This document shows positions 1,921-18,861 of a DNA stretch of 33,080 nucleotides, piece by piece. Position 1 is the first letter of the stretch; every line of letters begins with the position of its first letter. The notes under the pieces are model-generated. The model did no database searches, was not told the DNA's origin, and saw only the letters and a program-made list of their open reading frames with translations. Source of the DNA: Phycisphaerae bacterium. GTDB taxonomy: Bacteria; Planctomycetota; Phycisphaerae; UBA1845; Fen-1342. Made by a program: the position numbers and the translations under genes. The DNA is taken from NCBI GenBank assembly GCA_023128695.1, contig JAGMDK010000130.1, positions 1 to 33,080 on the forward strand. The letters run 5' to 3'.

Positions 1921-2214
1921 ATGGCTGTGACGCTTAGCAAAGCGACGTGCGCCTTTTGCAACGGGACGGGCGTGGATCAGACCGGCGCTATGGCGAGGGG
2001 TTCCAAGTGCCCGGTCTGCGCCGGGCGCCGGATAGTCTACGTCCAGGAGCCCTACGTCCCCTGCGCCGATTGCGATGGCCGGGGCAAGAGGCCCGGCTCG
2101 CGGCTGACGTGCATGAAGTGCCGCGGCAAAGGGGTTGTCCACCACCAGGCCGAGCCGACAGCCGAATACGGCCAGTGGTGGGACAGCAGCGGCGAAGGAC
2201 GCTGGAGAAGTTGA
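1921..2214 (+). CDS. Short DnaJ-type zinc-motif protein, copy 1
   Basis: A 97-residue protein with GAGGT upstream of ATG 1921. It carries four CxxC motifs in the style of the DnaJ cysteine-rich domain: CAFCNGTG, CPVCAGRR, CADCDGRG and CMKCRGKG. In type I Hsp40s such motifs pair to hold two zinc ions and bind unfolded substrate. There is no J-domain here. After motif 4 the sequence AEPTAEYGQWWD aligns with AEPTTECPQCDG in the longer paralogue at 2698, so the fifth motif has lost both cysteines to Tyr and Trp and the sixth is absent. It is the first of three tandem genes. Confidence 0.75.
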   Translation: MAVTLSKATCAFCNGTGVDQTGAMARGSKCPVCAGRRIVYVQEPYVPCADCDGRGKRPGSRLTCMKCRGKGVVHHQAEPTAEYGQWWDSSGEGRWRS

Positions 2215-2306
2215 TCCGGAACCGGCGGACCGATGGCCGGTCGAACGAGAACGGGCAGTGGCAAAACAAGCCCCGGCAGCTTGGGGCTTGAGGAGGTCGC
2301 CAGAGA

Positions 2307-2609
2307 ATGGCTGTGACGCTTACCAAAGCTGAGTGCGCATTCTGCCGGGGAACCGGCGTTGTGGCGAAGATTTCCAAGTGCCCGGTCTGCAACGGGCGCA
2401 AGGTAGTGTATGTGCAGGAGCCCTTCGTCCCCTGCCCCGAATGCGAGGGCAGGGGCAAGAAGCCCGGCACGCAGATGAGTTGCCTGAAGTGCCGCGGGAA
2501 AGGGGTTGTCCACCAGGCCGAGCCGACAACCGAATACGCCGAGTGGGCCGGCCCGACAACCAAATACTCCCAGTGGAACGCCGGCGGCGAAGGAGCCTGG
2601 AAGAGCTGA
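2307..2609 (+). CDS. Short DnaJ-type zinc-motif protein, copy 2
   Basis: A 100-residue tandem paralogue of the gene at 1921, with GAGGAGGT before ATG 2307. Motifs are CAFCRGTG, CPVCNGRK, CPECEGRG and CLKCRGKG. Two residues groups that would be the fifth motif in the long paralogue read TTEYAEW and, in a further partial copy, TTKYSQW. Thus the aromatic replacement of cysteine is repeated rather than random. No J-domain. The likely role is a substrate-binding or zinc-structured adaptor of the locus; this is inferred from family and context. Confidence 0.75.
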   Translation: MAVTLTKAECAFCRGTGVVAKISKCPVCNGRKVVYVQEPFVPCPECEGRGKKPGTQMSCLKCRGKGVVHQAEPTTEYAEWAGPTTKYSQWNAGGEGAWKS

Positions 2610-2697
2610 TCCGGAACCGGCGGACCGATGGCCGGTCGAACGAGAACGGGCAGTGCCGAAACAAGCCCCGGCAGCATGTGGCGCGAGGAGATTACGC

Positions 2698-3954
2698 GTG
2701 GTAGTTCGGAAGAAAATGGCTGTGGTGACTACGAAAGTCAAGTGCGCGTTTTGCAAGGGGACGGGCAAGGATCCGTTCGGCGTCATGTCGAAGAGATCCA
2801 AGTGCCCGGTCTGCAACGGGCACCGGGAAGTCCATGTACAGGCGCCCACCGTCCCCTGCGCCTTTTGCGGCGCCACGGGCAAGCAGCCGCACTCACGCCT
2901 GACCTGCCAGGCGTGCCGCGGGAAAGGCGTTGTGCACCTGGCCGAGCCGACAACCGAATGCCCCCAGTGCGACGGCACCGGCAAGGAGCCGGGAGAGATG
3001 AATCTGCCCTGCTGGGTGTGCAAGGGCGCCGGGTGGCTCGGCAAGAATACATCCGTGCCAAAAGAGGTGACGGCGGCGGCGGCCGAACGAAAGGCGGCGG
3101 CAAAAGAAAGAGCTGCGAAACGAGCGGCGGCCGGCACGACGCCGGCCGGGGTCGGCACGCAAATCGACTGCGCCTTTTGCAGCGGGACCGGCGTGGACCC
3201 GTTCGGGGTTATGTCGCAGGAATCCAACTGCCCCGTCTGCAACGGACGCGGGAAGGTCCATGTGCAGGAGCCCACCGTTTCCTGCGCCTATTGCCACGCC
3301 ACGGGCAACCAGCCCGGCACGCGGCTGACGTGCACGACCTGCCACGGGAAAGGGGTCCTCCATCTGGCCGGGCCGACAACCCAATGCCCCAACTGCGACG
3401 GCAGCGGCCGGGAGCCGAAGACGAACATGCCCTGCGGGCTGTGCAAAGGTGCCGGCCTGATCTCCAGGCACAAAACCGTGCCAACAAAAGTACTTGAGAA
3501 GAAGGCAAAGCGAAAAGCTGTCAAACGGAAAGCGGCTCGCCGCACGACGCCGCCCGAGGAGATGATGGTCGTCAAGTGTGCCTTCTGCGACGGGGTGGGC
3601 GTAGACCCGTTCGGGGTTATGTCGGTGCTGTCCAAGTGCCCCGTGTGCAACGGACGCACGAAGGTGAGCGTGCGGAAGCCCGCCTACCCCTGCGCCTACT
3701 GTCACGGCACCGGCAGGCAGCGTGGCACCAAACTGAGCTGCGGGGTGTGCAAGGGCACCGGGCACGTCACCGTGCCCGGACCGGTGGCCGAGTGCCCGGA
3801 GTGTGATGGGCGCGGCAAGAGGCACGGGGCCCGCTTGCCCTGCGTCCTCTGTCGGGGCACCGGCCTGGTCACTGAGAAGTCAACCGAGAAGGCAACTGTG
3901 CCCGCCCAGGATAACAGCACCGACTCGCAGGGCGGCGCAGCAGAGGAGACGTAG
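2698..3954 (+). CDS. Triple DnaJ-type zinc-finger protein with 18 CxxC motifs
   Basis: The protein has 418 residues from GTG 2698, which has GAGGAG seven bases upstream. ATG 2716, in the position used by the two paralogues, is the alternative. It holds three homologous units of six CxxCxGxG-like motifs each (for example CAFCKGTG, CPVCNGHR, CAFCGATG, CQACRGKG, CPQCDGTG, CWVCKGAG in unit 1). Eighteen motifs could bind about nine zinc ions. Units are joined by Ala/Lys/Arg-rich linkers. A standard DnaJ has four motifs and a J-domain; here there is no J-domain. It is soluble and has no signal peptide. It could present several unfolded-protein binding faces at once. The J-domain of the locus is found on the GvpF/L at 8245. 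Confidence 0.8.
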   Translation: MVVRKKMAVVTTKVKCAFCKGTGKDPFGVMSKRSKCPVCNGHREVHVQAPTVPCAFCGATGKQPHSRLTCQACRGKGVVHLAEPTTECPQCDGTGKEPGEMNLPCWVCKGAGWLGKNTSVPKEVTAAAAERKAAAKERAAKRAAAGTTPAGVGTQIDCAFCSGTGVDPFGVMSQESNCPVCNGRGKVHVQEPTVSCAYCHATGNQPGTRLTCTTCHGKGVLHLAGPTTQCPNCDGSGREPKTNMPCGLCKGAGLISRHKTVPTKVLEKKAKRKAVKRKAARRTTPPEEMMVVKCAFCDGVGVDPFGVMSVLSKCPVCNGRTKVSVRKPAYPCAYCHGTGRQRGTKLSCGVCKGTGHVTVPGPVAECPECDGRGKRHGARLPCVLCRGTGLVTEKSTEKATVPAQDNSTDSQGGAAEET

Positions 3955-4751: not shown

Positions 4752-4833
4752 CCCGTTTCGCCGGACGTGCCGGCGGGCAGCCGCGCGCCGGTACGACAGG
4801 ATTCACCCGCCACGCAGACAGGAGTCAATGACC

Positions 4834-5115: not shown

Positions 5116-5141
5116 GCTCGCTCCTGAACAGGAGAATCAAC

Positions 5142-5327
5142 ATGCCCTTTGATCTGCGAGGTAAGCTTGAGGAAGACAAAGCGGAAAAAAAAAAGGAATA
5201 CGATCAGGACCGCACCTACACGCGGTGGTACAGAAAAGGAAGGAACTTCATTTGTCCCCGGTGCGGGGTTCACACGAGCTCGGACAAGATGTTCTGCACC
5301 GATTGTGGTGCCAAGCTGCCATCGTAA
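5142..5327 (+). CDS. Zinc-ribbon small protein
   Basis: A 61-residue protein; ATG 5142 follows AGGAG at a normal distance. The N-terminal 35 residues are charged helix with KAEKKKEY. A single zinc ribbon follows: Cys38, Cys41, Cys52 and Cys55 in CPRCGVHT...FCTDCGAKL. The same ribbon with nearly the same flanks (CPKCGVHT...FCTDCGQKL) is found in the next gene, so the two are related. Zinc ribbons of this type usually bind protein or nucleic acid; nothing here decides between them. Context suggests a protein contact in vesicle assembly. Confidence 0.7.
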   Translation: MPFDLRGKLEEDKAEKKKEYDQDRTYTRWYRKGRNFICPRCGVHTSSDKMFCTDCGAKLPS

Positions 5328-5433
5328 GACCGGGCGCATTGCAGGGCGAGCGCCAAGGGCCGGAAAGATTCAAGCCGGCTGATACCAAGGGCCGTGCAGG
5401 GCAACAACCTTGCACCCAAACAGGAGAATGAAC

Positions 5434-5793
5434 ATGGCCTGGGAGCATAAAGAGAAATTCACGGCGGAAAAGATCCCCGAGGAGATGAGAGCATTCAACA
5501 AACACACTCCCGGCATGGAGTGGCCCAGAAGAGGAAGGGACACCTTTACGTGTCCCAAGTGCGGCGTCCACACCTTCTCGGGCAAGGAATTCTGCACCGA
5601 TTGTGGCCAAAAACTGTCGTATGAATGCCCGCAATGCGGACTGGGATTCCGGTACGAGTACCAACAGGCCTTCTGTCCCGACTGCGGCGCCGACCTGCGG
5701 CAGGACATGTGGTTCGGAGTCCAACAAAAACCGAAGCGGCCCGTCACCATGAAGCCCGGGACGGTCAGGACAGTCGAAGAGGAGGTCTACTAA
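5434..5793 (+). CDS. Double zinc-ribbon protein
   Basis: A 119-residue protein from ATG 5434, with AGGAG upstream (an in-frame ATG at 5410 lies before that site). It has two zinc ribbons: Cys40, Cys43, Cys54, Cys57, then Cys65, Cys68, Cys81, Cys84. The first ribbon matches the one in the 61-residue neighbour. The head is charged helix and the tail is basic. Its stop codon TAA overlaps the ATG of the next gene (TAATG at 5791), so the two are translationally coupled, which ties it functionally to the DnaJ-type zinc protein that follows. Confidence 0.75.
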   Translation: MAWEHKEKFTAEKIPEEMRAFNKHTPGMEWPRRGRDTFTCPKCGVHTFSGKEFCTDCGQKLSYECPQCGLGFRYEYQQAFCPDCGADLRQDMWFGVQQKPKRPVTMKPGTVRTVEEEVY

Positions 5794-6545
5794 TGGCTTG
5801 GGATGTGACTAAAGTACTGAAACCTGTGGACGCGCCCCCGCTCGAGACCCTCGCGGGCGGCGAGCCGGCGGCGACGGCCACCATCCCCGCGCCGCCGGCG
5901 ACGGGAGTAGAGGACCAGAACACGACCGGGAAGCCCACTCTCGTTTTTCACCCGGCAGGTGTAACCAGCAAGTCAGCAGCACACGTGGGTGGGAAACATA
6001 GGCTCCCGAACTTGCTGTACGGCGGGGAATTCGATTGCGCCTTCTGTAAGGCGACAGGCCTGGTGCACGGCAATGTATGCGCCGTCTGCCGCGGTAAGGG
6101 GACCGTGAAGGTGAAACCTCCCCTGGTGAAGTGTGCGTACTGCCATGGCCGGGCTCATGTTCCCACGGGCAGCGATATAACCTGCCCGGTCTGCCGCGGC
6201 GTTGGGCTCAACAGGGTGAAACCGCCGATCGAGAGGTGCCCGGATTGCAGGGGGCGCGGGAGGCAGCCCGGTCAGGCACTGTACTGTGGCCTCTGCCGCG
6301 GCTCAGGCGTTATCACCAAGGTCCCAGAGAAGCCGCAGGAGGGCCCGAACGTCGTGAAACAGAGGGACCCCAACAAGAAGCTCCTGCCCGGCGGCAAGGA
6401 GCCGGGGACCGGCAAGCCTTTCCAGCCGCCCTGGCACGGCCCATCAGTGGCCCCCGAGGAGGAGCACGAAATGGTCGAGAAAAAGAGGAAACAGGCGCTC
6501 GAATGGAAACCGGTGCCCCGGGCCATACGAAGGCCTCACAAGTAA
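5793..6545 (+). CDS. DnaJ-type zinc-motif protein with six CxxC motifs
   Basis: A 250-residue protein whose ATG 5793 overlaps the previous stop. The first 80 residues are Pro/Ala-rich and probably flexible. Residues about 82-172 hold six motifs: CAFCKATG, CAVCRGKG, CAYCHGRA, CPVCRGVG, CPDCRGRG and CGLCRGSG. This is one complete unit of the sort that is triplicated in the protein at 2698, so it is the closest single-unit relative of that protein in the window. The C-terminal 70 residues are basic and Pro-rich. There is no J-domain. By family it should bind about three zinc ions and unfolded polypeptide. Confidence 0.75.
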   Translation: MAWDVTKVLKPVDAPPLETLAGGEPAATATIPAPPATGVEDQNTTGKPTLVFHPAGVTSKSAAHVGGKHRLPNLLYGGEFDCAFCKATGLVHGNVCAVCRGKGTVKVKPPLVKCAYCHGRAHVPTGSDITCPVCRGVGLNRVKPPIERCPDCRGRGRQPGQALYCGLCRGSGVITKVPEKPQEGPNVVKQRDPNKKLLPGGKEPGTGKPFQPPWHGPSVAPEEEHEMVEKKRKQALEWKPVPRAIRRPHK

Positions 6546-6900: not shown

Positions 6901-7830
6901 ATGCCAGCAACCGACGGTGTTACGCCGATTGAGATCGAAAAGGACCAGCCGGGCGTCGTCAGGACGCCCATGGTGGACAGTATTGTGAACCGCTCTCTGG
7001 CTTATCTGGGTGCCGGATACCCGGTCCACCTGACCGGCGCGGCGGGGACGGGCAAGACCTGCCTGGCACTCTACATCGCGGCCCAGATCGGGCGGCCCAT
7101 TATCCTGACACACGGCGACGAGGAGTTGGGCACCACCGACATGGTCGGCGGGAGCTACGGGTGGAAGCACAAGAAAGTTATGGACAACTTCATTCACTCG
7201 GTGAAGAAGCTGGATCAGTCGGTCTCGTCGATGTGGGTGGACAATCGGGTGACGGTGGCCTGCAAGTACGGTTTCACGCTGGTGTACGACGAGTTCACCC
7301 GCAGCCGGGCCGAGGCCAACAACAGCCTGCTCTCCGTCCTGGAAGAGCGCGTCCTGGACATGCCGTCCGGGCGGGGCGACCAGTCCTTCGTGCGCGTGCA
7401 CCCGAACTTCCACGCGATCTTCACCAGCAACCCGGCGGAATACGCCGGCGTGCACCGGGCCGCCGACGCCCTCCTGGACCGCATGGTTACGATCAAGCTC
7501 GGGCACTATGACCGCGAGACCGAGATCGCCATCACGGTGGCCAAGGCCGGGGTCAGTGATACCACGGCTACACGGATCGTGGATATCGTGCGCGGCCTCC
7601 GCGACTCGGAGCTGACCGACCGCAGGGGCGATGAGGTCTGTCCGGCGACGGTCCGGGCATCGATCATCATCGCCACCGTACTGCAGGCCTATGAGGCCGA
7701 AGCCAAGGTCAACGACGCAAACTTCGTTCTTCTTTGCCATGACGTGCTGGATTCGTCGCGCATGGAGATAATGCCCGACCAGAACGTCAAGGACGAGGTC
7801 ACTAAGCTGATCCAGAAGTTCGCGGCCTAA
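6901..7830 (+). CDS. gvpN: Gas vesicle protein GvpN, AAA+ ATPase
   Basis: A 309-residue protein with AAAGGA before ATG 6901. It is a MoxR-like AAA+ ATPase with Walker A GAAGTGKT at residues 46-53 and Walker B FTLVYDEF at 125-132, followed by EFTRSRAEANNSLLSVLEER, a conserved stretch of the GvpN family, and a sensor region FTSNPAEYAG. Length matches the family. GvpN is needed for vesicles to grow beyond small bicones and is thought to use ATP to remodel or deliver shell components in the cytoplasm. It leads the gvp core on the plus strand. Confidence 0.96.
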   Translation: MPATDGVTPIEIEKDQPGVVRTPMVDSIVNRSLAYLGAGYPVHLTGAAGTGKTCLALYIAAQIGRPIILTHGDEELGTTDMVGGSYGWKHKKVMDNFIHSVKKLDQSVSSMWVDNRVTVACKYGFTLVYDEFTRSRAEANNSLLSVLEERVLDMPSGRGDQSFVRVHPNFHAIFTSNPAEYAGVHRAADALLDRMVTIKLGHYDRETEIAITVAKAGVSDTTATRIVDIVRGLRDSELTDRRGDEVCPATVRASIIIATVLQAYEAEAKVNDANFVLLCHDVLDSSRMEIMPDQNVKDEVTKLIQKFAA

Positions 7831-8244: not shown

Positions 8245-9330
8245 ATGTCAACGCAATGCAGTTATCTCTACGGTATCATGCCGGCCGACAAGGCGAGAAG
8301 CTTCGGTCCCATCGGGATGGACGGCGGCAACGTCCGCGTGGTGACACACGGCGCGCTTGCCATGGTTGCCAGCCCGGCCGAGCGCATTCACTTTCCCGAC
8401 CTCCCGGCCGAGAAGATGCTTCAATACCTAGCCGAACACCAGCGCGTTCTCGAGCGGGTGATGCCCGACTCAGCGGTGATTCCGATGAAGTTCGGCACCT
8501 ATGCGGAGGACGAGGAGCAGGTTCCGGGCATCCTTCAGTCCGGGCGGGAGGTGTTCAGCCGAGCCCTGGAGGAATACGCCGGCAAGTTCGAGCTGGACCT
8601 GGTCGCCTCGTGGGCGGACCTTCGGGCCATCCTGTCCGAGATCGCCGCTGACCCGGCGGTTACGTTGATGAAGGCCAAGATCGTCGCCGGGGGGAAAGCG
8701 ACGATGGAACAGCGCCTCCGGCTGGGGCACTTGACCAAGAGGCTGCTGGATGAGCGGCGCGGCCGGATCGCAGCCGAACTGGTCGTGGCTTTGCGGGCGC
8801 TGTGGCCCCGCATCGTGGTCAACGAAACCAAGGATGACTCGATGATCCTCAACGCGGCTCTCTTGATCGACCGAAGCGACGAAGCTTCATTTGACCAGTT
8901 CGTCGATCAGCTCAACCGCGATTACGAAGATCGGCTCGATTTTCGCTGCGTTGGTCCGCTGCCGCCGTACAGCTTCGCGACCGCGGAGGTGCGGGCCGTT
9001 GATGCCGACGAGTTGGATGCCGCGCGGCAACTGCTCGGATTGGGCGAATCGCCCGGTCCGGCGGAAATCAAGGCGGCCTATCGCCGAATGCTGCAAGAGG
9101 TTCACCCCGACAGGAATCCCGACGCCGACGCGGCTGACCGCATGAAGGAGCTCGTCGCCGCGCACGAGCTTCTGGAAGAGTGTGCCTTGAATTGGAAACC
9201 GACGCCCCCCGCCGGCACAGGCGGGGCGCTGATCGTCAAGGTCAGGTCCCTGCCCGAAATACGGCTCAGGGCCGGTGTCTCCAAAGGCGCTTCCGAGCAA
9301 TCGGAACGTCTGGAGCCCCTGGGCGTTTGA
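8245..9330 (+). CDS. gvpF/L: GvpF/GvpL fused to a C-terminal DnaJ J-domain
   Basis: A 361-residue protein from ATG 8245, with GGAG upstream. Residues 1-245 are a GvpF/L domain: the start YLYGIMPAD, the central PMKFGT and the typical end CVGPLPPYSFA are all present. GvpF/L proteins are about 240-280 residues and bind GvpA monomers before assembly. Residues about 253-315 are a J-domain, with AARQLLGL, IKAAYRRMLQEVHPDRNPDA and the HPD tripeptide at 287-289 that stimulates the DnaK ATPase. A 45-residue tail follows. The domain union is in one unbroken frame. A dnaK lies 6 kb downstream on the same strand, so this protein is the likely link between the shell subunit and Hsp70. Confidence 0.93.
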   Translation: MSTQCSYLYGIMPADKARSFGPIGMDGGNVRVVTHGALAMVASPAERIHFPDLPAEKMLQYLAEHQRVLERVMPDSAVIPMKFGTYAEDEEQVPGILQSGREVFSRALEEYAGKFELDLVASWADLRAILSEIAADPAVTLMKAKIVAGGKATMEQRLRLGHLTKRLLDERRGRIAAELVVALRALWPRIVVNETKDDSMILNAALLIDRSDEASFDQFVDQLNRDYEDRLDFRCVGPLPPYSFATAEVRAVDADELDAARQLLGLGESPGPAEIKAAYRRMLQEVHPDRNPDADAADRMKELVAAHELLEECALNWKPTPPAGTGGALIVKVRSLPEIRLRAGVSKGASEQSERLEPLGV

Positions 9331-9354
9331 GCAACCCACTAGAGGAGCATGAAC

Positions 9355-10221
9355 GTGTCGACGGCCACGTTAACTAGCGAACCGCGCCCGGCAGTCGAGC
9401 CGGACCAACAGAAGGACTGGGGCCCGCGACGCTATATCTATTGTATCACCGACTGCGCTGAGCCGGCTCTCTTCGGTCCGCTGGGCCTTGGGAATGACTC
9501 GGAGTGCTTCGCGATGCCCTACAAGGGGATCTCCGCTGTCGTCAGCCGCACCCCGGAGAAGAAATTCGAGATTTCACGCGTGAACACTCTGAGGCACCAG
9601 CACGTGATGGAAGCGGTCATGGAGCGTGGATACACCGTCCTGCCGGTCAGGTTCGACACGATCGCCGAGGACAAGCCCGACGGGTCCGCCGACGCCGATA
9701 GCCGCATCGTCAACCATGTGCTCACCAAGCGCCTGGAGGAATTCACCGGGCTGCTGAAGATCTTCAGTGGCCGCGTGGAACTTGGGGTCAAGGGATTGTG
9801 GACCAACATGGAGACCGTTTTCGGCGAGATTGTGCGGGCCGATTACGACATCAAGCGCCTGCGCAGGAGAATGCTCGGCACCAAGGCCGGCAAGGCATCC
9901 GGCCAGCGTGAAGCCGGCCTCGCTCCCGAGGCCAGACTGGGCGAATTGGTCAAGAAGGCCTTGGATGCAAAGAAGGAGCGCGTCCAAAGGAAGCTGTTGA
10001 AGCAAGTTGACAACATGATAGTGGACTCGCGCACGAACAAGACTTTCGGTGACAAAATGTTCGCCAATCTGGCCCTGCTGGTCAAGAAACACCGACAGGG
10101 CGACTTTGGGGGTGCGCTGACGAAGTTCGACGATGAGCGGGCGGGAGGGGTCAAACTGAAATACATTGGCCCGGTACCGCCGTCGAATTTCATCGAAATC
10201 ATTATTACCTGGGACGATTGA
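9355..10221 (+). CDS. gvpF/L: Gas vesicle protein GvpF/GvpL, second copy
   Basis: A 288-residue protein. GTG 9355 is chosen because AGGAG at 9343-9347 lies seven bases before it; ATG 9349 is only one base from that site but would add just two residues. The GvpF/L pattern is present: RYIYCITDCA at the start, LPVRFDTIAE in the centre and IGPVPPSNFIEI at the end. A Lys/Arg-rich insert at about residues 175-205 lengthens the middle. No J-domain here. The stop overlaps the region of the gvpG start, so translation is coupled. By family it is a minor cytoplasmic assembly protein that interacts with the GvpA-type shell proteins. Confidence 0.92.
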   Translation: MSTATLTSEPRPAVEPDQQKDWGPRRYIYCITDCAEPALFGPLGLGNDSECFAMPYKGISAVVSRTPEKKFEISRVNTLRHQHVMEAVMERGYTVLPVRFDTIAEDKPDGSADADSRIVNHVLTKRLEEFTGLLKIFSGRVELGVKGLWTNMETVFGEIVRADYDIKRLRRRMLGTKAGKASGQREAGLAPEARLGELVKKALDAKKERVQRKLLKQVDNMIVDSRTNKTFGDKMFANLALLVKKHRQGDFGGALTKFDDERAGGVKLKYIGPVPPSNFIEIIITWDD

Positions 10222-10777: not shown

Positions 10778-10784
10778 TAGGGTA

Positions 10785-12857
10785 GTGGCAGGCTTACTGG
10801 CTAACGAGGAGAGTTTGCGCCTGGTGATTTTCGGCGGCAAAGGCGGCGCCGGCAAGACCACCTCCGCGGCAGCGACGGCCATCCATCTGGCGCGGCGAAG
10901 GCCACGGCGGAGGATTCTGCTGGTATCGACCGATCCCGCCCATTCACTGGCCGACAGTCTGGATGTGTTTGTCACGGACGACCCCGTGGCCGTGCCGGGA
11001 ACCGACAACCTGTGGGTCCGTCAGTTGGATGCCCCGCAGGCGGACCGCCGCTTCCACATGCAATACGACAGGGTCTTGAAGGCGCTGATTGACCGCGGGA
11101 CTTTTCTGGACGATGAGGATGCCCAGAACATAGTCGACTTACCGCTACCGGGGCTCGATGAGATAATCGCCGTCAGGGAACTGGCCAACCTTCTGAAGGA
11201 AAACACGTACCAGCTCATCATCATGGATACCGCGCCCACCGGACATACGCTCAGGCTGCTGGCGTTGCCGGAGGTGATGGAGAGCTGGGTGCACGCTTAC
11301 TCGCTCATGCAGCGCAAACATAAGTACATGCAGCGCACATTCGCCGGACGTTGCACACCGGACGCGGTGGATGCTTTTCTCAAGACGCTCCGTGCCGACG
11401 TGTGCCGCGTACGAGACCTGCTGCACAACTCCGCTTCCACTGAATTCGTCCCCGTGGCCAACGCCGATCCACTCAGCGTCGCCGAAACCCGACGCCTGGT
11501 GGATACGCTCGCCAACATGCGCATAGCCGTTCGCAGCCTCGTCATCAACCGCGTTCCGGCTGACAGAGACTGCCCCTTCTGTCGAGCCAGACACGTCGAG
11601 GCGGTCTCCTGGCTCGACCGGATCGGTCAGGACTTCGAGCCGTTCAACCTCGTGCGCGTGCCGCTGTTGGCCGGCCAGGTCCGGGGTGTGGGAAAGCTGG
11701 AGCGCTTCGGCGCGGCAGTATTCGGCGCCGAGGCGGCCGGCGCACCGACGGAAGACACGCCGGCGATAGATGTCGGCAAGTCGCTCAGGCATCGGCAGAC
11801 ACCCTTGGCCGAGCTGCTGCATAGAAACTGCAAGTTCATTCTGTTTGGCGGCAAGGGCGGCGTGGGGAAGACCTCTTTGGCCGCTGCAATGGCCCTGAAG
11901 ATTGCCGCGCAGCGTCCCAAGGATCGCGTCTTGGTGCTCTCGATCGACCCGGCCCACTCGTTGTCCGATTGCCTTGACTGTTCCGTAGGCAACCAGGCCG
12001 TCCGTATAAACGCCCCAGGCCTGCTGGAGGCCAAGGAGCTGAACGCGGAGGACCTCTTCAAGGCCTATATAGACGAATACCGCCGGGATATCGCGCGGGC
12101 TTTCGACATCGCGGGGAATGTGGAACTGCGCTTCGACCGGGAGGTCATGGACGAGCTCCTCTCGGTCTGGCCGTCGGGTCTGGACGAGATCATGGCCCTG
12201 GTGGAGATGCTGGACCTGTCCGATGCCTATGACGTAGTCGTGCTCGATACGGCGCCCACCGGACACCTGCTCCGTTTCCTGGAGATGCCCGAGTTGGCCC
12301 GGCAATGGCTGAAGGCCATCTTCAGAATCATCATAAAGCACCAGACCGTCATCAACCTGACCAACATCGGTGAAAAACTTGTCCAGCTTTCGCGTGATAT
12401 TCGCCGTGTCCAGGAAGCACTGATCAACGCCGATCAGACCACGTTTGTCGCGGTGACCATCCCGGAAACGATGGCGGTTGCCGAGACCCACAGACTGCTG
12501 GCGTCTCTGAAGCGCTTGGGCGTGTCTTGTCGCGACCTGGTCATCAACATGGTCACGTCCAGCCCGGCCTCCTGCCCGTTCTGCCGCGCGCGCCGGCGCG
12601 AGGAGCAGAGCTGCATACGTGAGCTGCGCGGGCCGGCGGACGTGGCCATAACCGAGGTGCCGCTGCTGGCTCAGCAGATCAGGGGTATTGGGGCGCTGAA
12701 CGACCTGATCGCCGCTGCCCTGGGGCCGGCCGGCTCCTGGATTCAACGGGTCCTCAACGTCTCGCCCAAGCTGTTTGCCCCGCTGGGGCGTCTAATGTCA
12801 GTCGCCGTTGCGAACCCGGCTCCAGGCGAGACCTGCACCTGCCGGCGACGAGACTGA
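10785..12857 (+). CDS. Double ArsA/Get3-like ATPase within the gvp core
   Basis: A 690-residue protein; GTG 10785 has GAGGAG ten bases upstream. It has two homologous halves. Each has a deviant Walker A (GGKGGAGKTT at 17-26 and GGKGGVGKTS at 355-364), STDPAHSL or SIDPAHSL (switch I), and DTAPTGHTLR or DTAPTGHLLR (switch II). Each half also has a CPFCRAR motif, like the zinc-binding CxxC of Get3. ArsA drives arsenite export with ArsB; Get3 shields hydrophobic tail-anchored proteins. No arsB, arsR or arsD is nearby. The position between gvpO and a gvpJ-like gene suggests a Get3-type role with the hydrophobic shell subunits. This role is inference. Confidence 0.88.
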   Translation: MAGLLANEESLRLVIFGGKGGAGKTTSAAATAIHLARRRPRRRILLVSTDPAHSLADSLDVFVTDDPVAVPGTDNLWVRQLDAPQADRRFHMQYDRVLKALIDRGTFLDDEDAQNIVDLPLPGLDEIIAVRELANLLKENTYQLIIMDTAPTGHTLRLLALPEVMESWVHAYSLMQRKHKYMQRTFAGRCTPDAVDAFLKTLRADVCRVRDLLHNSASTEFVPVANADPLSVAETRRLVDTLANMRIAVRSLVINRVPADRDCPFCRARHVEAVSWLDRIGQDFEPFNLVRVPLLAGQVRGVGKLERFGAAVFGAEAAGAPTEDTPAIDVGKSLRHRQTPLAELLHRNCKFILFGGKGGVGKTSLAAAMALKIAAQRPKDRVLVLSIDPAHSLSDCLDCSVGNQAVRINAPGLLEAKELNAEDLFKAYIDEYRRDIARAFDIAGNVELRFDREVMDELLSVWPSGLDEIMALVEMLDLSDAYDVVVLDTAPTGHLLRFLEMPELARQWLKAIFRIIIKHQTVINLTNIGEKLVQLSRDIRRVQEALINADQTTFVAVTIPETMAVAETHRLLASLKRLGVSCRDLVINMVTSSPASCPFCRARRREEQSCIRELRGPADVAITEVPLLAQQIRGIGALNDLIAAALGPAGSWIQRVLNVSPKLFAPLGRLMSVAVANPAPGETCTCRRRD

Positions 12858-12872: not shown

Positions 12873-13238
12873 ATGGAAGCTCAGAACATTGATGGCGCGC
12901 AGGCCCCCAGCACGGGGACGCTGGCGGACGTGATCGATCGTATCCTGGACAAGGGCTTGGTGATCGACGCCGACATCACCATCTCCATAGTCGACGTGGA
13001 GTTGCTGAACATCAAGATCAGAGCGGTGCTGTGCTCGCTCGAGACAGCGGCTCGGTATGGCCTCGAACTACCCTCCGGAACCAACATGGAGACGGAGGCC
13101 TGGAAAGAAGCCCAGATCCCCAAAGAGAACTGTCCGCAGTGCGGTAAACGGAGTCCCCTGGAAGAGCTTCTGGGAGTGGGCTGTCCGTGGTGCGGCTGGG
13201 TGCCAGCGAAGCTCAAGGTGCTGGCCGAGGCCTCCTAA
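12873..13238 (+). CDS. gvpJ: GvpJ-like shell-family protein with C-terminal zinc ribbon
   Basis: A 121-residue protein; ATG 12873 follows GGAAG. Residues about 15-68 are a GvpA-superfamily domain: TLADVIDRILDKGLVIDADITISIVDVELLNIKIR and on to LETAARYGLELP. The DVELL.IKIR form fits GvpJ better than the major shell GvpA. Residues 87-107 are a zinc ribbon with Cys87, Cys90, Cys104 and Cys107 (CPQCGKRS...GCPWCGW). GvpJ-type proteins are minor shell or nucleation components, usually with a plain tail. A metal-binding tail could dock the zinc-rich chaperones of the locus; that is speculation. Confidence 0.9.
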   Translation: MEAQNIDGAQAPSTGTLADVIDRILDKGLVIDADITISIVDVELLNIKIRAVLCSLETAARYGLELPSGTNMETEAWKEAQIPKENCPQCGKRSPLEELLGVGCPWCGWVPAKLKVLAEAS

Positions 13239-13255: not shown

Positions 13256-13978
13256 ATGCCCGAACGGAAACGCACGATGCCTGAAAGGAAAGCCAACAGG
13301 GACGAAATGGCTGAGCAAATAAGGCAACTGAAAGAGGAGGTTCGCAAACTCCGCGAGACTTCCTCGGAACCCCCTGCCCAGGCAGAGGGCGTGGCCGAAG
13401 GCATCACGGCCGAGCTCGGGAAGATGATTCCCGGGTTGCAGAAGCTGATCGACGTCGCGGCCCAGATGCCGGAGTTCCGCCAGCGGCTGGCGTCGATCGA
13501 CGAGGAAATCAAGCGCAAGTTCAAGGAACAGCCGCTGCGCCGCGCTTCCGCGGAGATGACCAGGGGCATCGAACGCCGCCCGCTGGGCATTCCGCCGGGG
13601 GTACGCCGCGGCAGACCGGGACGGCCCGTTTCGGCGGGGACCGGAAAGGTGTGGTCCTCGGGCAAGCCTCCCGTGCGCGGCAAGCACGGTAAGCCTGGCC
13701 CGCCGAAAGTCCACATCAGTCCCGAGACGCCCGCGCAGCTTCCCGTGGACGTCTTTGACGAGGGGGACAGACTCGTGGTCCTGGCGGAGGCAACCGGTCT
13801 GAAGTTGGGGCACATTACGGTCTCCCTGGAGGGCACCGCACTTGTGATTTCCATCGACGGCCCCCATGGAAAGGGTGTCCAGCGGGTCGAGCTGCCGTGC
13901 GAGGTCGCCGGCGAGCCCAAGGTGTCCCTCGCGAAAGGAATACTGAAGATCCAGGTGAGCAAGGTGGACAAGCAATGA
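13256..13978 (+). CDS. gvpH: GvpH-like Hsp20-domain protein
   Basis: The product has 240 residues from ATG 13256, or 233 from ATG 13277; ribosome binding sites are weak for both. The N-terminal part is coiled coil (EMAEQIRQLKEEVRKLRE) followed by an amphipathic stretch (GITAELGKMIPGLQKLI). A basic, Gly/Pro-rich linker at about 115-165 separates it from a C-terminal alpha-crystallin-like domain (VFDEGDRLVVLAEATGL ... GILKIQVSK). GvpH proteins of haloarchaea combine an N-terminal helix with an Hsp20 domain and chaperone vesicle proteins. Its stop overlaps the gvpK start, so the two are coupled. Confidence 0.8.
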   Translation: MPERKRTMPERKANRDEMAEQIRQLKEEVRKLRETSSEPPAQAEGVAEGITAELGKMIPGLQKLIDVAAQMPEFRQRLASIDEEIKRKFKEQPLRRASAEMTRGIERRPLGIPPGVRRGRPGRPVSAGTGKVWSSGKPPVRGKHGKPGPPKVHISPETPAQLPVDVFDEGDRLVVLAEATGLKLGHITVSLEGTALVISIDGPHGKGVQRVELPCEVAGEPKVSLAKGILKIQVSKVDKQ

Positions 13979-14328
13979 TCAAGATCGACGAAGCGAAGCT
14001 TAAGAATGGCGTTTTGGGTCTGGTGATGGCCGTCGTGGAGATCATCCGCGACGCCCTGCAAAATCAGGCCACCCGCCGAATGGAGTCGGGCAGTCTGGTT
14101 GAGGAAGAGGTTGAGCGCTTGGGCCGGGCCCTGGCGGACCTGGACCTCGCCATCGAGGACATCAAGCGCGAACAGGGGATCGAGCAGGCCGTCCAGTCGG
14201 TTCGTGACGGCTTGGACGACCTCGTTAATGACGTTGTCCAAACCGTGGTTGACCCAAGCAAATGGCCCGTAGTACCGGCCGGTACTGAGCGCGAAGAGCT
14301 AGTGGGAGCACAGAAGAATGACAGTTGA
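13975..14328 (+). CDS. gvpK: Gas vesicle protein GvpK
   Basis: A 117-residue protein. ATG 13975 overlaps the previous stop (ATGA). Family features are LKNGVLGLVMAVVEIIRDALQ, QATRRMESGSLVEEEVERLGRALADLDLAIEDIK, in the right order. The tail of about 40 residues beyond the usual end is acidic and variable. GvpK is an accessory protein needed for proper vesicle development. The end overlaps the start of the third GvpF/L by 11 bases. Confidence 0.93.
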   Translation: MIKIDEAKLKNGVLGLVMAVVEIIRDALQNQATRRMESGSLVEEEVERLGRALADLDLAIEDIKREQGIEQAVQSVRDGLDDLVNDVVQTVVDPSKWPVVPAGTEREELVGAQKNDS

Positions 14329-15440: not shown

Positions 15441-15506
15441 ACGCAAGGCCCAGTCAGCCACCTGGAGACCGAAGAGTTCACGCTGCGATAAGGAGACAAC
15501 AGATCA

Positions 15507-17369
15507 ATGGATACCCCAACGGATACCCCAACGGACGCCCCAACAGAGACCATCATAGGCATCGACTTGGGCACGACCAATTCCGCCGTAGCCTACATGA
15601 AAGACGGAGAGTCCGTCATCGTGCCGAACATGGAGGGCGACGCGCTGACGCCGTCGGTGGTGGCTTTCGCCGAGGACGACCGCCGGTGGGTGGGGCGGAT
15701 CGCCAAGACCCAGGCCGTGGCAAACCCCCGGAGGACGATATTCTCCATCAAGCGGCGGATGGGGAGTACCCGCACGGCCCGGGAGGAGTTGCTCGACGTC
15801 GTCTCCTCCATTAAGCGGCGGATGGGTACCGAGAACGTGGTGACCGTTGGTAATCGCACGTACACGCCCGTCGAGATCTCCGCCATGATCCTCGAAAAAC
15901 TCAAGGCGGATACCGAGGCATATCTGGGAAAAACGATCAAGCGGGCGGTCATCACCGTTCCGGCCTACTTCAACGACAGTCAACGACGGGCGACCAGAGA
16001 GGCCGGAGCGGTCGCCGGCCTGGAGGTGGTGCGGCTGGTCAACGAGCCCACGGCGGCGTCGCTGGCCTACGGCCTGGATATCGAGAAGGTGCACTCGATT
16101 CTGGTGTGGGACCTCGGCGGCGGAACGTTCGACGTGTCGGTACTTGAGCTGGGTGACGGGGTCTTCGAGGTCAAGGCCGTCAACGGGAACACCAAGTTGG
16201 GCGGGGACGATTACGACCAGCGCCTCGTCGAGATGCTGATTGAGCGCTTTCGCGACGAATGGGACGTGGATCTCAACCAAGATGCGACTGCCAAGCGCAT
16301 GACGCGCCAGTTGGCGGAGCAGGCCAAGATGCGGCTAACCGACGACGCCGAGACGCGGGTGGTGCTGCCGGCCTATCTCAGCGAGGGCCGCCGCTGCGCC
16401 CTAACCGTCACCAGAGACGCCTTCGAGCAGATCACGGCCGACATTACCGAGAGGATGGTGGCTCCCGCGGAATGCGCCCTGTCCGATGCGGGTATCGACC
16501 CGATCGCTCTGGACCGGGTTGTCCTGGTCGGCGGGATGACCCGGGTGCCGGCGGTCCGGGCCCTGGTCAAGCGGATCACCGGGATCGACCCCTACGGGCA
16601 CATCGATCCGGACAAGGTCGTCGCCCTGGGAGCCGCGATTCAGGCGGGCGTGCTCGCCGGGCAGGTGCACAATGTCACCCTGGTGGATGTGACCCCGCTG
16701 TCGTTGGGGATCGAGACCAAGGGCGAACTCTTCACCCGCATCATCCATCGTAACACCCCGATCCCGACCACCAAGAGCAAGCTGTTCACCAACGCGGAGG
16801 ACGACCAGACCGTGGTGGAGATACACGTCCTTCAAGGTGAACGCGAGCTCGCTCCGGACAATGTTACTCTGGACAAGTTCTATCTGCACGACGTCGAGCC
16901 GCAACCCCGGGGCGAGGCCCGGCTCGAGGTGTGGTTCGACATCGACGCCAACGGGATGGTCCACGTCTCGGCCGTCGATCTTCAGCAGGACACCGTCAAG
17001 CGGATTCGCATCGAGGCCGCCTGCCAACCGCCCGCTGACGTTGTGGAACGAATGCTGGCCCAGAGCCAAGAGAAGATGGAGTCGGACCAGCGCAAGCGGC
17101 AAGAGATCGAGGCCGGAATACGTGGAGAGAACCTGATCCTCGCCACCGAGAAACTGGTCGGCGACATGGGAGAGACACCCGACGAGAAGGTCCGTCAGGC
17201 GGCCGAAGCTGCCGAGCACGGCACCGCGCAGGTCCGTGATGCCATGGCCGACGGGAGACTTGAGCGCATCACCTCGGCCAACGAGACGCTCGAGGCGCAA
17301 GTGAAGAAGCTCGACTTGGCGATCAAAGCTGCCGCAGCACCTATTATGGCCCAGGAGCCTGTGGCCTGA
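15507..17369 (+). CDS. dnaK: DnaK (Hsp70) chaperone in the gas vesicle locus
   Basis: A 620-residue Hsp70 from ATG 15507, which follows AAGGAGA. ATPase signatures: IGIDLGTTNS at 17-26, VPAYFNDSQRRATREAG, DLGGGTFDVSVLEL and VLVGGMTRVPAVR. The substrate domain has DVTPLSLGIETKGE, HVLQGERELAPDN and FDIDANGMVHVSA. The lid is shortish and the usual acidic EEVD-like bacterial tail is missing; the end is KAAAAPIMAQEPVA. The N-terminus starts with a DTPT repeat. SIKRRMG occurs twice, 21 residues apart, from a 63-bp internal duplication. Its J-domain partner is probably the GvpF/L at 8245; no grpE is in the window. It is likely a locus-dedicated paralogue, not the housekeeping copy. Confidence 0.95.
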   Translation: MDTPTDTPTDAPTETIIGIDLGTTNSAVAYMKDGESVIVPNMEGDALTPSVVAFAEDDRRWVGRIAKTQAVANPRRTIFSIKRRMGSTRTAREELLDVVSSIKRRMGTENVVTVGNRTYTPVEISAMILEKLKADTEAYLGKTIKRAVITVPAYFNDSQRRATREAGAVAGLEVVRLVNEPTAASLAYGLDIEKVHSILVWDLGGGTFDVSVLELGDGVFEVKAVNGNTKLGGDDYDQRLVEMLIERFRDEWDVDLNQDATAKRMTRQLAEQAKMRLTDDAETRVVLPAYLSEGRRCALTVTRDAFEQITADITERMVAPAECALSDAGIDPIALDRVVLVGGMTRVPAVRALVKRITGIDPYGHIDPDKVVALGAAIQAGVLAGQVHNVTLVDVTPLSLGIETKGELFTRIIHRNTPIPTTKSKLFTNAEDDQTVVEIHVLQGERELAPDNVTLDKFYLHDVEPQPRGEARLEVWFDIDANGMVHVSAVDLQQDTVKRIRIEAACQPPADVVERMLAQSQEKMESDQRKRQEIEAGIRGENLILATEKLVGDMGETPDEKVRQAAEAAEHGTAQVRDAMADGRLERITSANETLEAQVKKLDLAIKAAAAPIMAQEPVA

Positions 17370-17379
17370 AGTCATCACG

Positions 17380-18300
17380 ATGAAAGAAGAAGAACTCTTA
17401 CAGTATTTGCTGGTCCCCTCCGAGCAACTCGTCCTCGTCAGCCCAGGCGCCTGTAGAACCTCTGATCGCTCGGGCTGGAAGCTGGGGCGGATGGTCCTGA
17501 CCGACATGCGGATCGTCTTCGTCGCAGCCGACCGCCGGCTCAGGGTCCAGGTGCTGCTCGATAACCTCAGGGACATCACCGTGGCAAAACAGCCCTTTTT
17601 CATTGCCAAACCTCCGGCCGTGAGGCTGACGTGGTCGGTGACGCCGACTAACCAATGGGTGTCGTCCCGCCGCATGGCTTGGCTGATCATGGGCAAAGCC
17701 AAGGCCTGGGCAGAGGCGATTTACCAGATGGCGCTCCTAGAGGTAACCGACCAAACCATCGAACGGGTCGCAGCCAGCGTGGATCCGGACAGTGCCGCCA
17801 TGCTGCGGTATGTCTGTCACCAGCACCATGCCGGCGTCGACGAACTCGCGGGTTTGATAGACGCGCCCTGCCACGATGATGTGCTGGTCAGGATTCACAA
17901 GACCATTAACCCCGCCGCGGTAAAGCTGTTGGGATGCAACATCCTGGTCTTTCGCCGGCGCTGGAGAGCAAGCGGCGACTCCGAGCCAATCAGCTTCAAC
18001 TGGTGGATCGCCGGAAGACGCAAGAGCGTCTCCACCACACCCATTGCGTCGGTGAATGTCTTCGAGGAACCCGACCAGGTGCATGTGGTGGCGGACCTGC
18101 CCGGCGTCAAGGACAACAACGATGTGATGCTGAGCATCTGCGACAGCCGCTTGGTTATCTCCGCGGCCTCCAACACGGAAAGATTCAACGAAGAGGCCAT
18201 CCTGCCGCCGGGCACACGCACGGAGACGATGACCTCGGGCATGAACAATGGCGTACTCGTCGTGCGGTTTCGCCGGCACTCACGCCGGAAGACTGCATAA
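17380..18300 (+). CDS. CheF-like/PH-type domain fused to Hsp20-like domain
   Basis: A 306-residue protein 10 bases after dnaK. Residues about 15-125 read like the PH-like part of archaeal CheF (GRMVLTDMRIVFVAADRRLRVQ, then LLDNLRDITV), and residues about 130-192 like a short winged-helix region with VDELAGLIDAP. Residues about 223-298 are an Hsp20-like fold: VNVFEEPDQVHVVADLPGV, LSICDSRLVISA and NNGVLVVRFRR. I do not know a named family with this order. CheF links chemotaxis to the archaellum; here that role is not implied. The Hsp20 part links it to the two other Hsp20-domain genes of the locus. The CheF likeness is by eye and should be checked. Confidence 0.65.
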   Translation: MKEEELLQYLLVPSEQLVLVSPGACRTSDRSGWKLGRMVLTDMRIVFVAADRRLRVQVLLDNLRDITVAKQPFFIAKPPAVRLTWSVTPTNQWVSSRRMAWLIMGKAKAWAEAIYQMALLEVTDQTIERVAASVDPDSAAMLRYVCHQHHAGVDELAGLIDAPCHDDVLVRIHKTINPAAVKLLGCNILVFRRRWRASGDSEPISFNWWIAGRRKSVSTTPIASVNVFEEPDQVHVVADLPGVKDNNDVMLSICDSRLVISAASNTERFNEEAILPPGTRTETMTSGMNNGVLVVRFRRHSRRKTA

Positions 18301-18345
18301 ACTGGTCACGAGCGAACCTTCGCTCAGTACGAGAAGGAGAATGAA

Positions 18346-18861
18346 ATGGCGAAAAAGGACGAACAGGTTCAGACGTCCACTGGCTTCGGCTTGGGCGGTC
18401 TGTTCGAGGGGATTCAGAAGCTGATGGAAGCTGCCGCCGGACTACAAGGGTCCGACGAGATTAATAAGACCCAGGAGTTCACCATTCCGGGGCTCGGCGA
18501 GAAGGGCAAAGGCATCTTCGGCTTCTCCATCAGGAACCTCGCCGGCGAGACTCCAAGCGTGAAGGTCCAGCCCTTCGGCAACATTCACAAGCGCAAAGAG
18601 GGAATGGTCGTCGAGGAAGCCAGAGAGCCCGTGGTCGATACCTTTGAGGAAGGCGATCGAATCCGCGTGATTGCCGAGCTGCCCGGCGTTTCGGAGAGCG
18701 ACCTCAAGTACGAAATCGAGGGCGACATCTTGACGATCTCGACCAATGGCGAGCGCCCATACAATGCCGAAGTGCTCCTGCCCGCCGCCGTCGAGCCGGG
18801 CGACATCGAATCCTCCTACAACAACGGCATTCTTGAACTGAAGCTCAAGAAGGCCGGTTGA
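18346..18861 (+). CDS. gvpH: GvpH/Hsp20-type small heat-shock protein
   Basis: A 171-residue protein with AAGGAG before ATG 18346. The N-terminal part (GFGLGGLFEGIQKLMEAAAGLQ) resembles GvpH leaders; residues about 95-170 are an alpha-crystallin-like domain with VVDTFEEGDRIRVIAELPGVSESDLKY, GDILTIS and YNNGILELKLKK. GvpH is a soluble vesicle chaperone in haloarchaea. The last 50 bases of this gene have a diverged copy at 24835-24897, after the second ArsA-like gene, so another hsp20 gene once stood there. Confidence 0.88.
   Translation: MAKKDEQVQTSTGFGLGGLFEGIQKLMEAAAGLQGSDEINKTQEFTIPGLGEKGKGIFGFSIRNLAGETPSVKVQPFGNIHKRKEGMVVEEAREPVVDTFEEGDRIRVIAELPGVSESDLKYEIEGDILTISTNGERPYNAEVLLPAAVEPGDIESSYNNGILELKLKKAG

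What the first reader, a model, noticed from the sequence alone, without database searches (positions are those of the whole stretch)
1921..18861. Gas vesicle locus with a split Hsp40 and its own DnaK
The parts of a type I DnaJ are separated: the J-domain sits on a GvpF/L (8245), the zinc motifs sit on stand-alone proteins (1921, 2307, 2698, 5793), and a dnaK is embedded among gvp genes (15507). Three Hsp20-domain genes are added. I infer a locus-dedicated Hsp70 machine for building gas vesicles, with GvpF/L feeding shell subunits to DnaK and zinc proteins holding unfolded chains.
Basis: partly seen in the sequence, partly recalled or inferred. Interest (0 to 1): 0.85.

Follow-up and report, generated by a model that had tools for sequence, protein, structure and literature searches.

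The report
Gas-vesicle locus with dedicated Hsp70 team
Many bacteria that build protein gas bubbles carry, among the bubble genes, an assembly protein fused to the "J" switch of Hsp70 chaperones, often with a private Hsp70 beside it, which suggests that the bubbles are built or maintained with their own ATP-driven chaperone machine.

Summary
The named parts are present: 8245-9330 is a GvpF/L with a C-terminal J-domain (HPD intact), 15507-17369 a full DnaK between gvp genes, and four stand-alone proteins carry DnaJ-type zinc motifs.

The fusion is far wider than planctomycetes: 80 loci under about twenty phylum-level titles, HPD intact at 78 of 80 aligned sites, one origin the simplest reading. 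In 84 gvp-positive genomes of three phyla, 30 have the fusion, 12 a DnaK in the locus, 11 both; the one exception starts mid-cluster at a contig end. Thirteen of 16 locus DnaKs form one group apart from the housekeeping DnaKs sampled.

"Split Hsp40" is only partly right: the zinc proteins have their own six-motif layout and also occur in gvp loci without fusion or DnaK.

Most likely GvpF/L-J holds GvpA-type subunits and hands them to Hsp70; this step is inferred. Nine searches found no paper on fusion or DnaK.

The parts
8245..9330 (+). GvpF/L protein fused to a C-terminal J-domain (FL-J); J helices at residues 254-263, 272-286 and 296-316, HPD at 287-289
   Evidence: Pfam PF06386 189.8 bits and PF00226 39.2 bits; AlphaFold mean pLDDT 93.1; PDB matches GvpF 6l5d/4qsg, then J-domains such as 5vso and 5nro
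15507..17369 (+). locus DnaK (Hsp70), 620 aa, with a lid region
   Evidence: Pfam PF00012 633.8 bits; NCBIfam PRK00290 700 bits over 648, but TIGR02350 675.8 under 822.55; key residues kept; in a gvp-only group of 13, 100/100
1921..2214 (+). stand-alone zinc protein, four CxxC motifs (spacing 20-18-16)
   Evidence: PF00684 38.3 bits; spacing
2307..2609 (+). stand-alone zinc protein, four CxxC motifs (spacing 15-18-16)
   Evidence: PF00684 41.1 bits; spacing
2698..3954 (+). stand-alone zinc protein with three six-motif blocks (18 CxxC motifs)
   Evidence: PF00684 115.7 bits, seven stretches; AlphaFold of the first block pLDDT 85.3
5793..6545 (+). stand-alone zinc protein with one six-motif block
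   Evidence: PF00684 32.9 bits, cut-off 32.7
5142..5327 (+). zinc-ribbon protein
   Evidence: Pfam Zn_Ribbon_1 26.2 bits, cut-off 25
5410..5793 (+). double zinc-ribbon protein; relatives stand in other loci (tag ribB)
   Evidence: Pfam DZR 36.3 bits, cut-off 27.3
6901..7830 (+). GvpN AAA+ ATPase
   Evidence: TIGR02640 318.4 bits over 266.8
9349..10221 (+). second GvpF/L, no J-domain
   Evidence: PF06386 164.1 bits
10218..10472 (+). GvpG
   Evidence: PF05120 73 bits
10502..10777 (+). GvpO
   Evidence: PF05800 67.8 bits
10743..12857 (+). double-domain ArsA of the TRC40/GET3/ArsA family, CPFC in both halves
   Evidence: TIGR00345 427.6 bits over 135; P-loops, DTAPTGH and CPFC in both halves
12873..13238 (+). 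GvpA-family protein with a C-terminal pair of CxxC motifs
   Evidence: PF00741 60.9 bits; sequence
13256..13978 (+). Hsp20-like protein (weak)
   Evidence: NCBIfam Hsp20 33.6 bits, under its cut-off of 140; no Pfam match
13978..14328 (+). GvpK
   Evidence: PF05121 65.7 bits
14318..15109 (+). third GvpF/L, no J-domain
   Evidence: PF06386 221.3 bits
15135..15440 (+). GvpA-family protein directly before dnaK
   Evidence: PF00741 53.9 bits
17380..18300 (+). protein with a C-terminal Hsp20 domain
   Evidence: PF00011 24.7 bits over 20.8
18346..18861 (+). Hsp20
   Evidence: PF00011 31.5 bits over 20.8
22581..24866 (+). second double-domain ArsA
   Evidence: PF02374 407.8 bits; motifs
25176..27392 (-). 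CDC48/p97-type AAA+ ATPase, gvp-linked
   Evidence: TIGR01243 900.3 bits over 802.65; over cut-off in exactly the 6 gvp-positive of 150 genomes, window's own included

Best explanation
The locus encodes a gas-vesicle system with its own Hsp70 branch. GvpF/L proteins bind GvpA-type shell subunits (published for other organisms). Here one GvpF/L carries a J-domain, so it can dock on an Hsp70, trigger ATP hydrolysis and pass the hydrophobic subunit to it, or hold Hsp70 at the growing vesicle. Where the locus encodes a DnaK, as in this window, that DnaK is the preferred partner; elsewhere the housekeeping DnaK would serve. The zinc proteins and Hsp20s act as side holdases, and CDC48, the Get3-like ArsA and GvpN supply further ATP-driven steps. 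Shown here: the fusion, its predicted fold, the conserved HPD, an origin of the fusion that may be single, the intact and distinct DnaK, and co-occurrence. Inferred: J-Hsp70 docking, the client, the direction (assembly), and the roles of the side proteins.
For: Pfam DnaJ in 79 of 80 fusion proteins; HPD intact at 78 of 80 aligned sites. AlphaFold gives GvpF plus a J-domain, pLDDT 93.1; PDB matches include the DnaK-bound J-domain 5nro, E 0.049. The fusion needs 2 label changes on a 374-row GvpF/L FastTree (shuffled mean 84). Locus DnaKs keep D8, K70, R167, E171, T199 and D393 (E. coli numbers) in 16 of 16; 13 of 16 form one group with 100/100 support. Of 84 gvp-positive genomes, 11 have DnaK and fusion, 1 DnaK alone, 19 fusion alone, 53 neither, p = 2.7e-5; without the three search centres 8/1/19/53, p = 4.8e-4; also without two genomes known beforehand 7/1/18/53, p = 0.001. 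PMC11445434 (passages) says chaperoning of GvpA2 is likely done by GvpF; PMC9501494 (passages) reports GvpF as the GvpA partner in split-GFP tests.
Against: No binding or ATPase data. 19 of 30 fusion-positive genomes show no DnaK in the stretch examined. GrpE was not among the 30 proteins scanned. Fisher p-values ignore shared ancestry. The DnaKs of the tree come mostly from loci fetched through the fusion, so their standing beside a fusion is no extra evidence. L217 and L232 lack an intact HPD. DnaK N170, a J-contact position by recall, is S in 4 of 16. PMC11445434 saw GvpF bind GvpA2 only when other gvp genes were removed. In PMC11445434 DnaJ, DnaK and J-domain occur 0 times, and in PMC9501494 DnaJ 0 times, so studied systems are described without this machine and Hsp70 is not known to be a general need.
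Confidence: 0.68

Rival explanations
1. The J-Hsp70 pair serves turnover: it takes apart collapsed or mis-built vesicles and GvpA aggregates, with CDC48 as unfoldase, rather than building vesicles.
For: CDC48 is the annotated gene directly before the fusion gene, on the same strand, in 55 of 80 fusion loci, and Hsp20 is in 51 of 84 gvp loci; Hsp20, Hsp70 and an AAA+ unfoldase together resemble a disaggregation set.
Against: The published role proposed for GvpF is with new GvpA before the shell forms (PMC11445434, passages). CDC48 is also in 28 of 54 gvp loci without the fusion (23 of 30 with it, p = 0.036), so it does not depend on the J-domain.
Confidence: 0.2
2. The zinc proteins are the missing zinc domain of a type I DnaJ and act in trans with GvpF/L-J.
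For: PF00684 over cut-off in all four; the family profile finds E. coli DnaJ's zinc domain 1EXK at 8.9e-10 over motifs 3-6; zinc proteins are commoner where the locus has a DnaK (7 of 12 against 14 of 72, p = 0.008), and in near-complete loci with the fusion (9 of 20 against 6 of 37, p = 0.028).
Against: Six-motif layout with other spacing; no Foldseek match at E 0.001 or better; present in 10 of 54 genomes without fusion and absent from 19 of 30 with it.
Confidence: 0.15
3. The J-domain is a leftover or a structural spacer without Hsp70 function, and the DnaK is a chance neighbour.
For: 2 of 80 fusion proteins lack an intact HPD; 19 of 30 fusion-positive genomes show no DnaK in the locus.
Against: HPD intact at 78 of 80 aligned sites although identity to the window protein is mostly 28-37%; a gvp-only DnaK group and its place after gvpA2 in 13 of 15 DnaK-bearing fusion loci.
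Confidence: 0.07

Closest known systems
GvpF (Anabaena 6l5d, Microcystis 4qsg), binder of GvpA
   Same: Foldseek's first three matches, 246-249 columns; same family PF06386
   Different: those chains (237-244 residues) have no room for a J-domain
Dedicated Hsp70-J pairs such as HscA/HscB for iron-sulphur assembly (recalled)
   Same: a second Hsp70 with a J-protein whose other domain binds one client class
   Different: the client-binding part is GvpF/L, the genes sit in a gvp locus, and this Hsp70 passes a DnaK model (700 over 648 bits) but not the HscA models (best 544, under cut-off)
Class C J-domain proteins (naming recalled)
   Same: J-domain joined to an unrelated domain, no zinc or C-terminal DnaJ domain in the chain
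   Different: J-domain at the C-terminus of a gas-vesicle assembly factor
BSD2, a stand-alone DnaJ-type zinc protein that assists Rubisco assembly (role recalled)
   Same: DnaJ-like zinc motifs without a J-domain; weak Foldseek match of the zinc model, 6ekb E 0.062
   Different: six motifs; Pfam BSD2_CRD 24.3 bits under its cut-off of 27 for 1921-2214
Ruc, a zinc holdase that passes clients to DnaK (PMC7448276, passages)
   Same: small zinc protein tied to an Hsp70 system; a precedent for the role guessed here
   Different: one four-cysteine zinc ribbon, not CXXCXGXG repeats; no sequence comparison was made
gvp loci with ArsA and Hsp20 (PMC2963123)
   Same: two-domain ArsA and hsp20 inside gvp clusters
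   Different: DnaK and Hsp70 occur 0 times in its main text

Membership tests
GvpL/GvpF family | PF06386 over its curated cut-off | tested here: met
   189.8 bits against 23.6; Foldseek GvpF 6l5d E 1.8e-14
J-domain protein | J-domain over Pfam's cut-off with intact HPD between helices II and III | tested here: met
   39.2 bits against 27.8; HPD 287-289 between predicted helices 272-286 and 296-316
J-domain protein | stimulates Hsp70 ATPase | not testable with these tools
   needs purified proteins
Type I (class A) DnaJ | J, zinc and C-terminal client domains in one chain | tested here: not met
   FL-J matches only GvpL_GvpF and the J-domain; none of the 30 window proteins scanned matched a DnaJ C-terminal domain
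DnaK/Hsp70 | full-length HSP70 with catalytic and linker residues | tested here: met
   633.8 bits, residues 16-602; D8, K70, R167, E171, T199, D393 kept; NCBIfam PRK00290 over cut-off, TIGR02350 under
DnaJ zinc domain (DnaJ_CXXCXGXG) | PF00684 over cut-off | tested here: met
   38.3, 41.1, 115.7, 32.9 bits against 32.7
DnaJ zinc domain (DnaJ_CXXCXGXG) | four motifs with DnaJ spacing and fold | tested here: not met
   spacing differs in all four window proteins and two have six-motif blocks; best Foldseek match 2ctt E 0.017. The profile match to 1EXK over motifs 3-6 keeps homology likely
Anti-TRAP (RtpA) | curated cut-off of PF15777 or NF058604 | tested here: inconclusive
   2698-3954 passes both (72 over 32; 67 over 65), probably by repetition of the motif. 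The other three fail PF15777; 2307-2609 and 5793-6545 fail NF058604, 1921-2214 was not scanned with it
TRC40/GET3/ArsA ATPases | TIGR00345 over cut-off, P-loop, CxxC | tested here: met
   427.6 over 135; both halves with P-loop, DTAPTGH, CPFC
TRC40/GET3/ArsA ATPases | delivers tail-anchored or other hydrophobic proteins | not testable with these tools
   needs experiment
CDC48/p97 | TIGR01243 over cut-off | tested here: met
   900.3 over 802.65

The most novel reading that the evidence does not exclude
These loci encode a complete, gas-vesicle-only protein-handling relay. Hsp70 and GvpF/L-J receive the hydrophobic GvpA subunits, zinc proteins and Hsp20 hold them, a Get3-like double ArsA carries them, and GvpN and a dedicated CDC48 drive insertion or removal at the shell. 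It would be a bacterial counterpart, built from similar parts, of the eukaryotic route that delivers tail-anchored membrane proteins.
Probability: 0.25. Interest if true: 0.88.

Novelty: new variant of a known kind. Interest (0 to 1): 0.75.

Why it matters
How the very hydrophobic shell protein GvpA is kept soluble and added to a gas-filled shell is open. The two works read in passages propose GvpF as a likely chaperone but no Hsp70 cycle was seen there. A GvpF/L with a built-in Hsp70 switch gives a direct, testable link, and HPD mutants are a clean handle. Gas vesicles are also used as ultrasound reporters (titles), so extra assembly factors could help their transfer to new hosts.

Tried and rejected
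Chance neighbourhood: rejected by recurrence in other families and phyla. DnaK as the displaced housekeeping gene: rejected where data suffice. G123 and G202 hold a separate full-length DnaK. So do 12 of the 13 genomes that have a locus DnaK; the 13th, G543 (L223), shows only partial matches, and L229's genome was not held. Two weak cases: G000's other DnaKs are fragments at C538 and C295, and G460's other HSP70 matches (C125, C91) are divergent.

Missing ~24-residue insertion in the nucleotide domain as a mark of the gvp group: weak. Some non-gvp DnaKs (L099, L107, L251 among them) lack it too; window and L156 have extra residues there, in the window a second SIKRRMG stretch. Lidless DnaK: L177 and L201 end 35 and 24 residues after the beta subdomain; L179 looks lidless only because the locus ends there.

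Independence: no phylogeny-corrected test was made. The gvp group had 94/88 support in the 53-row tree; 100/100 comes from a second tree with six distant rows left out. All 16 locus DnaKs as one group is rejected (p-AU 0.014), G460 joining the 13 is not (0.293).

Limits of calls: one search kept 80 of 168. One search scored up to 6 first-look candidates a genome. Two-domain ArsA matches also occur in G020, G053 and G116, which have no GvpF/L match, so ArsA is not gvp-only. Of 26 gvp-positive Desulfobacterota 12 were examined; of 45 Chloroflexota 43 (G638, G703, single weak matches, left out); some genomes only in part of their gvp contigs. G393 and G226 were dropped from the 86-genome table because my model found no GvpF/L. 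G920, DnaK without fusion, has gvpK at base 1 of its contig.

Other rows dropped: L231 (run of N) and an extra frame of L188 from A3 (81 candidates; 79 plus window); five rows without six motifs and L181:18188 from A4 (58 found; 52 plus window); L223 (partial), L100 (the window again), L108 and L252 (fragments) from the DnaK trees.

Literature: nine searches of open-licence PubMed Central; I judged by listings and, for six papers, passages. None seen describes a J-domain GvpF/L, a gvp-locus DnaK or a gvp-linked CDC48. One search listed 15 of 1,628; PMC2631018, the only hit, was not opened. PMC2270826 (passages) claims a similarity of GvpC to DnaK and DnaJ, which I did not test. Subscription journals and preprints were not covered.

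Full report
WHAT IS THERE. The window is a complete contig (C36, 33,080 bases) of a 4.47-Mb, 668-contig assembly that is 87.7% complete. Its left two thirds, on the + strand, form a gas-vesicle locus. Pfam and NCBIfam name GvpN, three GvpF/L, GvpG, GvpO, GvpK, two GvpA-family proteins, two double-domain ArsA ATPases, a DnaK, two Hsp20 proteins over cut-off and one weak one, and four proteins with DnaJ-type zinc motifs. From the fusion gene to the DUF445 gene the spacings run from -35 to +66 bases. On the - strand at 25176-27392 lies a CDC48/p97-type ATPase. The first GvpF/L (8245-9330) carries a J-domain at its C-terminus. AlphaFold with 80 sequences gives mean pLDDT 93.1, with J helices at 254-263, 272-286 and 296-316 and HPD at 287-289. 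Foldseek's first three matches are GvpF structures (6l5d, 4qsg; E 1.8e-14 to 5.4e-14); the next are J-domains at E 0.005 and weaker, among them the DnaK-bound one 5nro.

THE FUSION IS WIDESPREAD. A scan of one genome per species with a four-member fusion alignment gave 168 relatives, of which the best 80 were kept. They carry about twenty phylum-level names in their record titles, among them Chloroflexi, Planctomycetota, Nitrospirae, Omnitrophota and Acidobacteria; Oscillochloris sp. ZM17-4 is one of the records not titled MAG. Of 80 proteins aligned (window plus 79 loci), 80 match GvpL_GvpF and 79 match the DnaJ domain. HPD is intact at 78 of 80 aligned sites; L217 and L232 lack it. Identity to the window's protein is mostly 28-37%. 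On a FastTree of 374 GvpF/L domains the 94 J-bearing rows need 2 changes of label against a shuffled mean of 84, so one origin is the simplest reading, though not shown. These 80 loci were selected for the fusion and say nothing on how common it is.

LESS BIASED TABLE. GvpF/L was searched in the window's relatives (6 of 150, own genome included), across its phylum (26 of 392), in Chloroflexota (45 of 301) and in Desulfobacterota (26 of 297). Stretches, up to 60 kb a genome, were examined for 86 gvp-positive genomes (31, 43 and 12); in 84 my model found a GvpF/L. The fusion is in 30, a DnaK in the locus in 12. Both: 11; DnaK alone: 1 (G920, whose contig begins inside gvpK); fusion alone: 19; neither: 53 (Fisher p = 2.7e-5). 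By phylum the association is p = 4e-5, 0.11 and 0.07. In 57 near-complete loci the counts are 10, 0, 10 and 37 (p = 4.3e-6). Without the three genomes that served as search centres they are 8, 1, 19, 53 (p = 4.8e-4) and 7, 0, 10, 37 (p = 1.1e-4); without two more genomes known beforehand 7, 1, 18, 53 (p = 0.001). These tests ignore shared ancestry. The relation is nested: a locus DnaK nearly always comes with the fusion, the fusion often comes without a locus DnaK.

THE LOCUS DnaK IS ITS OWN KIND. Of the 80 fusion loci, 15 show DnaK; in 13 it follows the second GvpA gene, and in the two Anaerolineae loci (L181, L189) it precedes the fusion gene (annotated genes only). A tree of 53 DnaKs put 13 of 16 locus DnaKs in one group (94/88): three Planctomycetota including the window, G123 of the window's class, two Chloroflexota, six Desulfobacteraceae or Deltaproteobacteria by title, and the Thermodesulfovibrionales of L160 (L257; identity checked). 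With six distant rows left out the support is 100/100. The Anaerolineae pair falls among Chloroflexota housekeeping DnaKs, and forcing all 16 together is rejected (p-AU 0.014), so DnaK entered gvp loci at least twice. Since 13 of the 16 come from loci fetched through the fusion, this repetition is not independent evidence of a tie to the fusion; the table above is. All 16 keep D8, K70, R167, E171, T199 and D393 (E. coli numbering), while N170 is S in 4. The position of M404 is polar (E, Q or K) in 12 of 16, where 17 of 18 housekeeping rows have L, and V436 is M in 9 of 16, which hints at a changed client. Residue roles are recalled.

THE ZINC PROTEINS ARE A DIFFERENT STORY. In the fusion loci 58 were found, 53 of them with six motifs, and 12 cysteines are invariant in 53 aligned rows. 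Their spacing (typically 20-18-16-18-16 or 15-18-17-18-16) differs from E. coli DnaJ's 17-22-14. Their profile finds DnaJ's zinc domain 1EXK (8.9e-10) over motifs 3-6, so they are likely distant kin of it with an added motif pair. Foldseek found nothing at 0.001 or better; weak matches are a DnaJ zinc domain, BSD2 and anti-TRAP. They occur in 11 of 30 fusion-positive and 10 of 54 fusion-negative genomes (p = 0.11), though in near-complete loci the tie is 9 of 20 against 6 of 37 (p = 0.028), and they are commoner with DnaK (7 of 12 against 14 of 72, p = 0.008). 'Split Hsp40' is therefore too strong; a loose partnership is not excluded.

CDC48 (TIGR01243) passes its cut-off in exactly 6 of 150 genomes (window's own included). 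These are the 6 gvp-positive ones, and each match lies on the gvp contig (Fisher p = 7e-11, ancestry ignored; up to 6 candidates a genome were scored). G013 has a shortened match of 759 bits, under cut-off, and no GvpF/L match. CDC48 is in 51 of 84 gvp loci and stands directly before the fusion gene among annotated genes in 55 of 80 fusion loci, on the same strand in all 55. The ArsA at 10743-12857 belongs to the TRC40/GET3/ArsA family and has P-loop, DTAPTGH and CPFC in both halves. ArsA and Hsp20 in gvp loci are already published (PMC2963123, passages).

HOW IT MOST LIKELY WORKS. Published interaction work makes GvpF a first binder and probable chaperone of GvpA, although in the full Bacillus system the contact showed only when other genes were removed (PMC11445434 and PMC9501494, passages). 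A GvpF/L with a functional J-domain would recruit Hsp70 to that client. I hold this at 0.68; that the DnaK of the locus is the preferred partner where present follows from co-occurrence and its separate group. Direction (building or clearing), client, and the roles of the zinc proteins, CDC48 and ArsA are inferred.

NOVELTY. Dedicated Hsp70-J pairs are a known kind (recalled); one for gas vesicles, made by fusing the J-domain to GvpF/L, appears to be a new variant. Nine literature searches showed no description, within open-licence papers and as far as listings and passages show.

Noticed in passing
25176-27392 (-): A CDC48/p97 ATPase that, among 150 genomes of the window and its relatives, passes the family cut-off only in the six gas-vesicle genomes, always on the gvp contig.
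   Followed up: yes
1-384: End of a coiled repeat protein cut by the contig start; it resembles a 458-aa repeat protein beside a short gvpA in G123 (L025), so the main shell gvpA may lie just outside the contig. Only two GvpA-family matches were found in the assembly.
   Followed up: partly
22581-24866: Second double ArsA lying mostly on DNA of about 46% G+C, while the other 1-kb windows have about 55-66%; possible recent arrival.
   Followed up: no
12873-13238: GvpA-family protein with a C-terminal pair of CxxC motifs, also seen in the G123 relative (L024 8908-9339).
   Followed up: no
L177 15629, L201 13978: Chloroflexota gvp DnaKs that end 35 and 24 residues after the beta substrate subdomain and so seem to lack the lid.
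   Followed up: partly
15507-17369, residues about 80-115: The window's DnaK carries a second SIKRRMG stretch in its nucleotide domain where kin such as G123 and L155 lack the residues.
   Followed up: partly
21111-21623 and 21628-22182: Two similar cysteine-rich proteins in tandem, probably a duplication (sequences).
   Followed up: no
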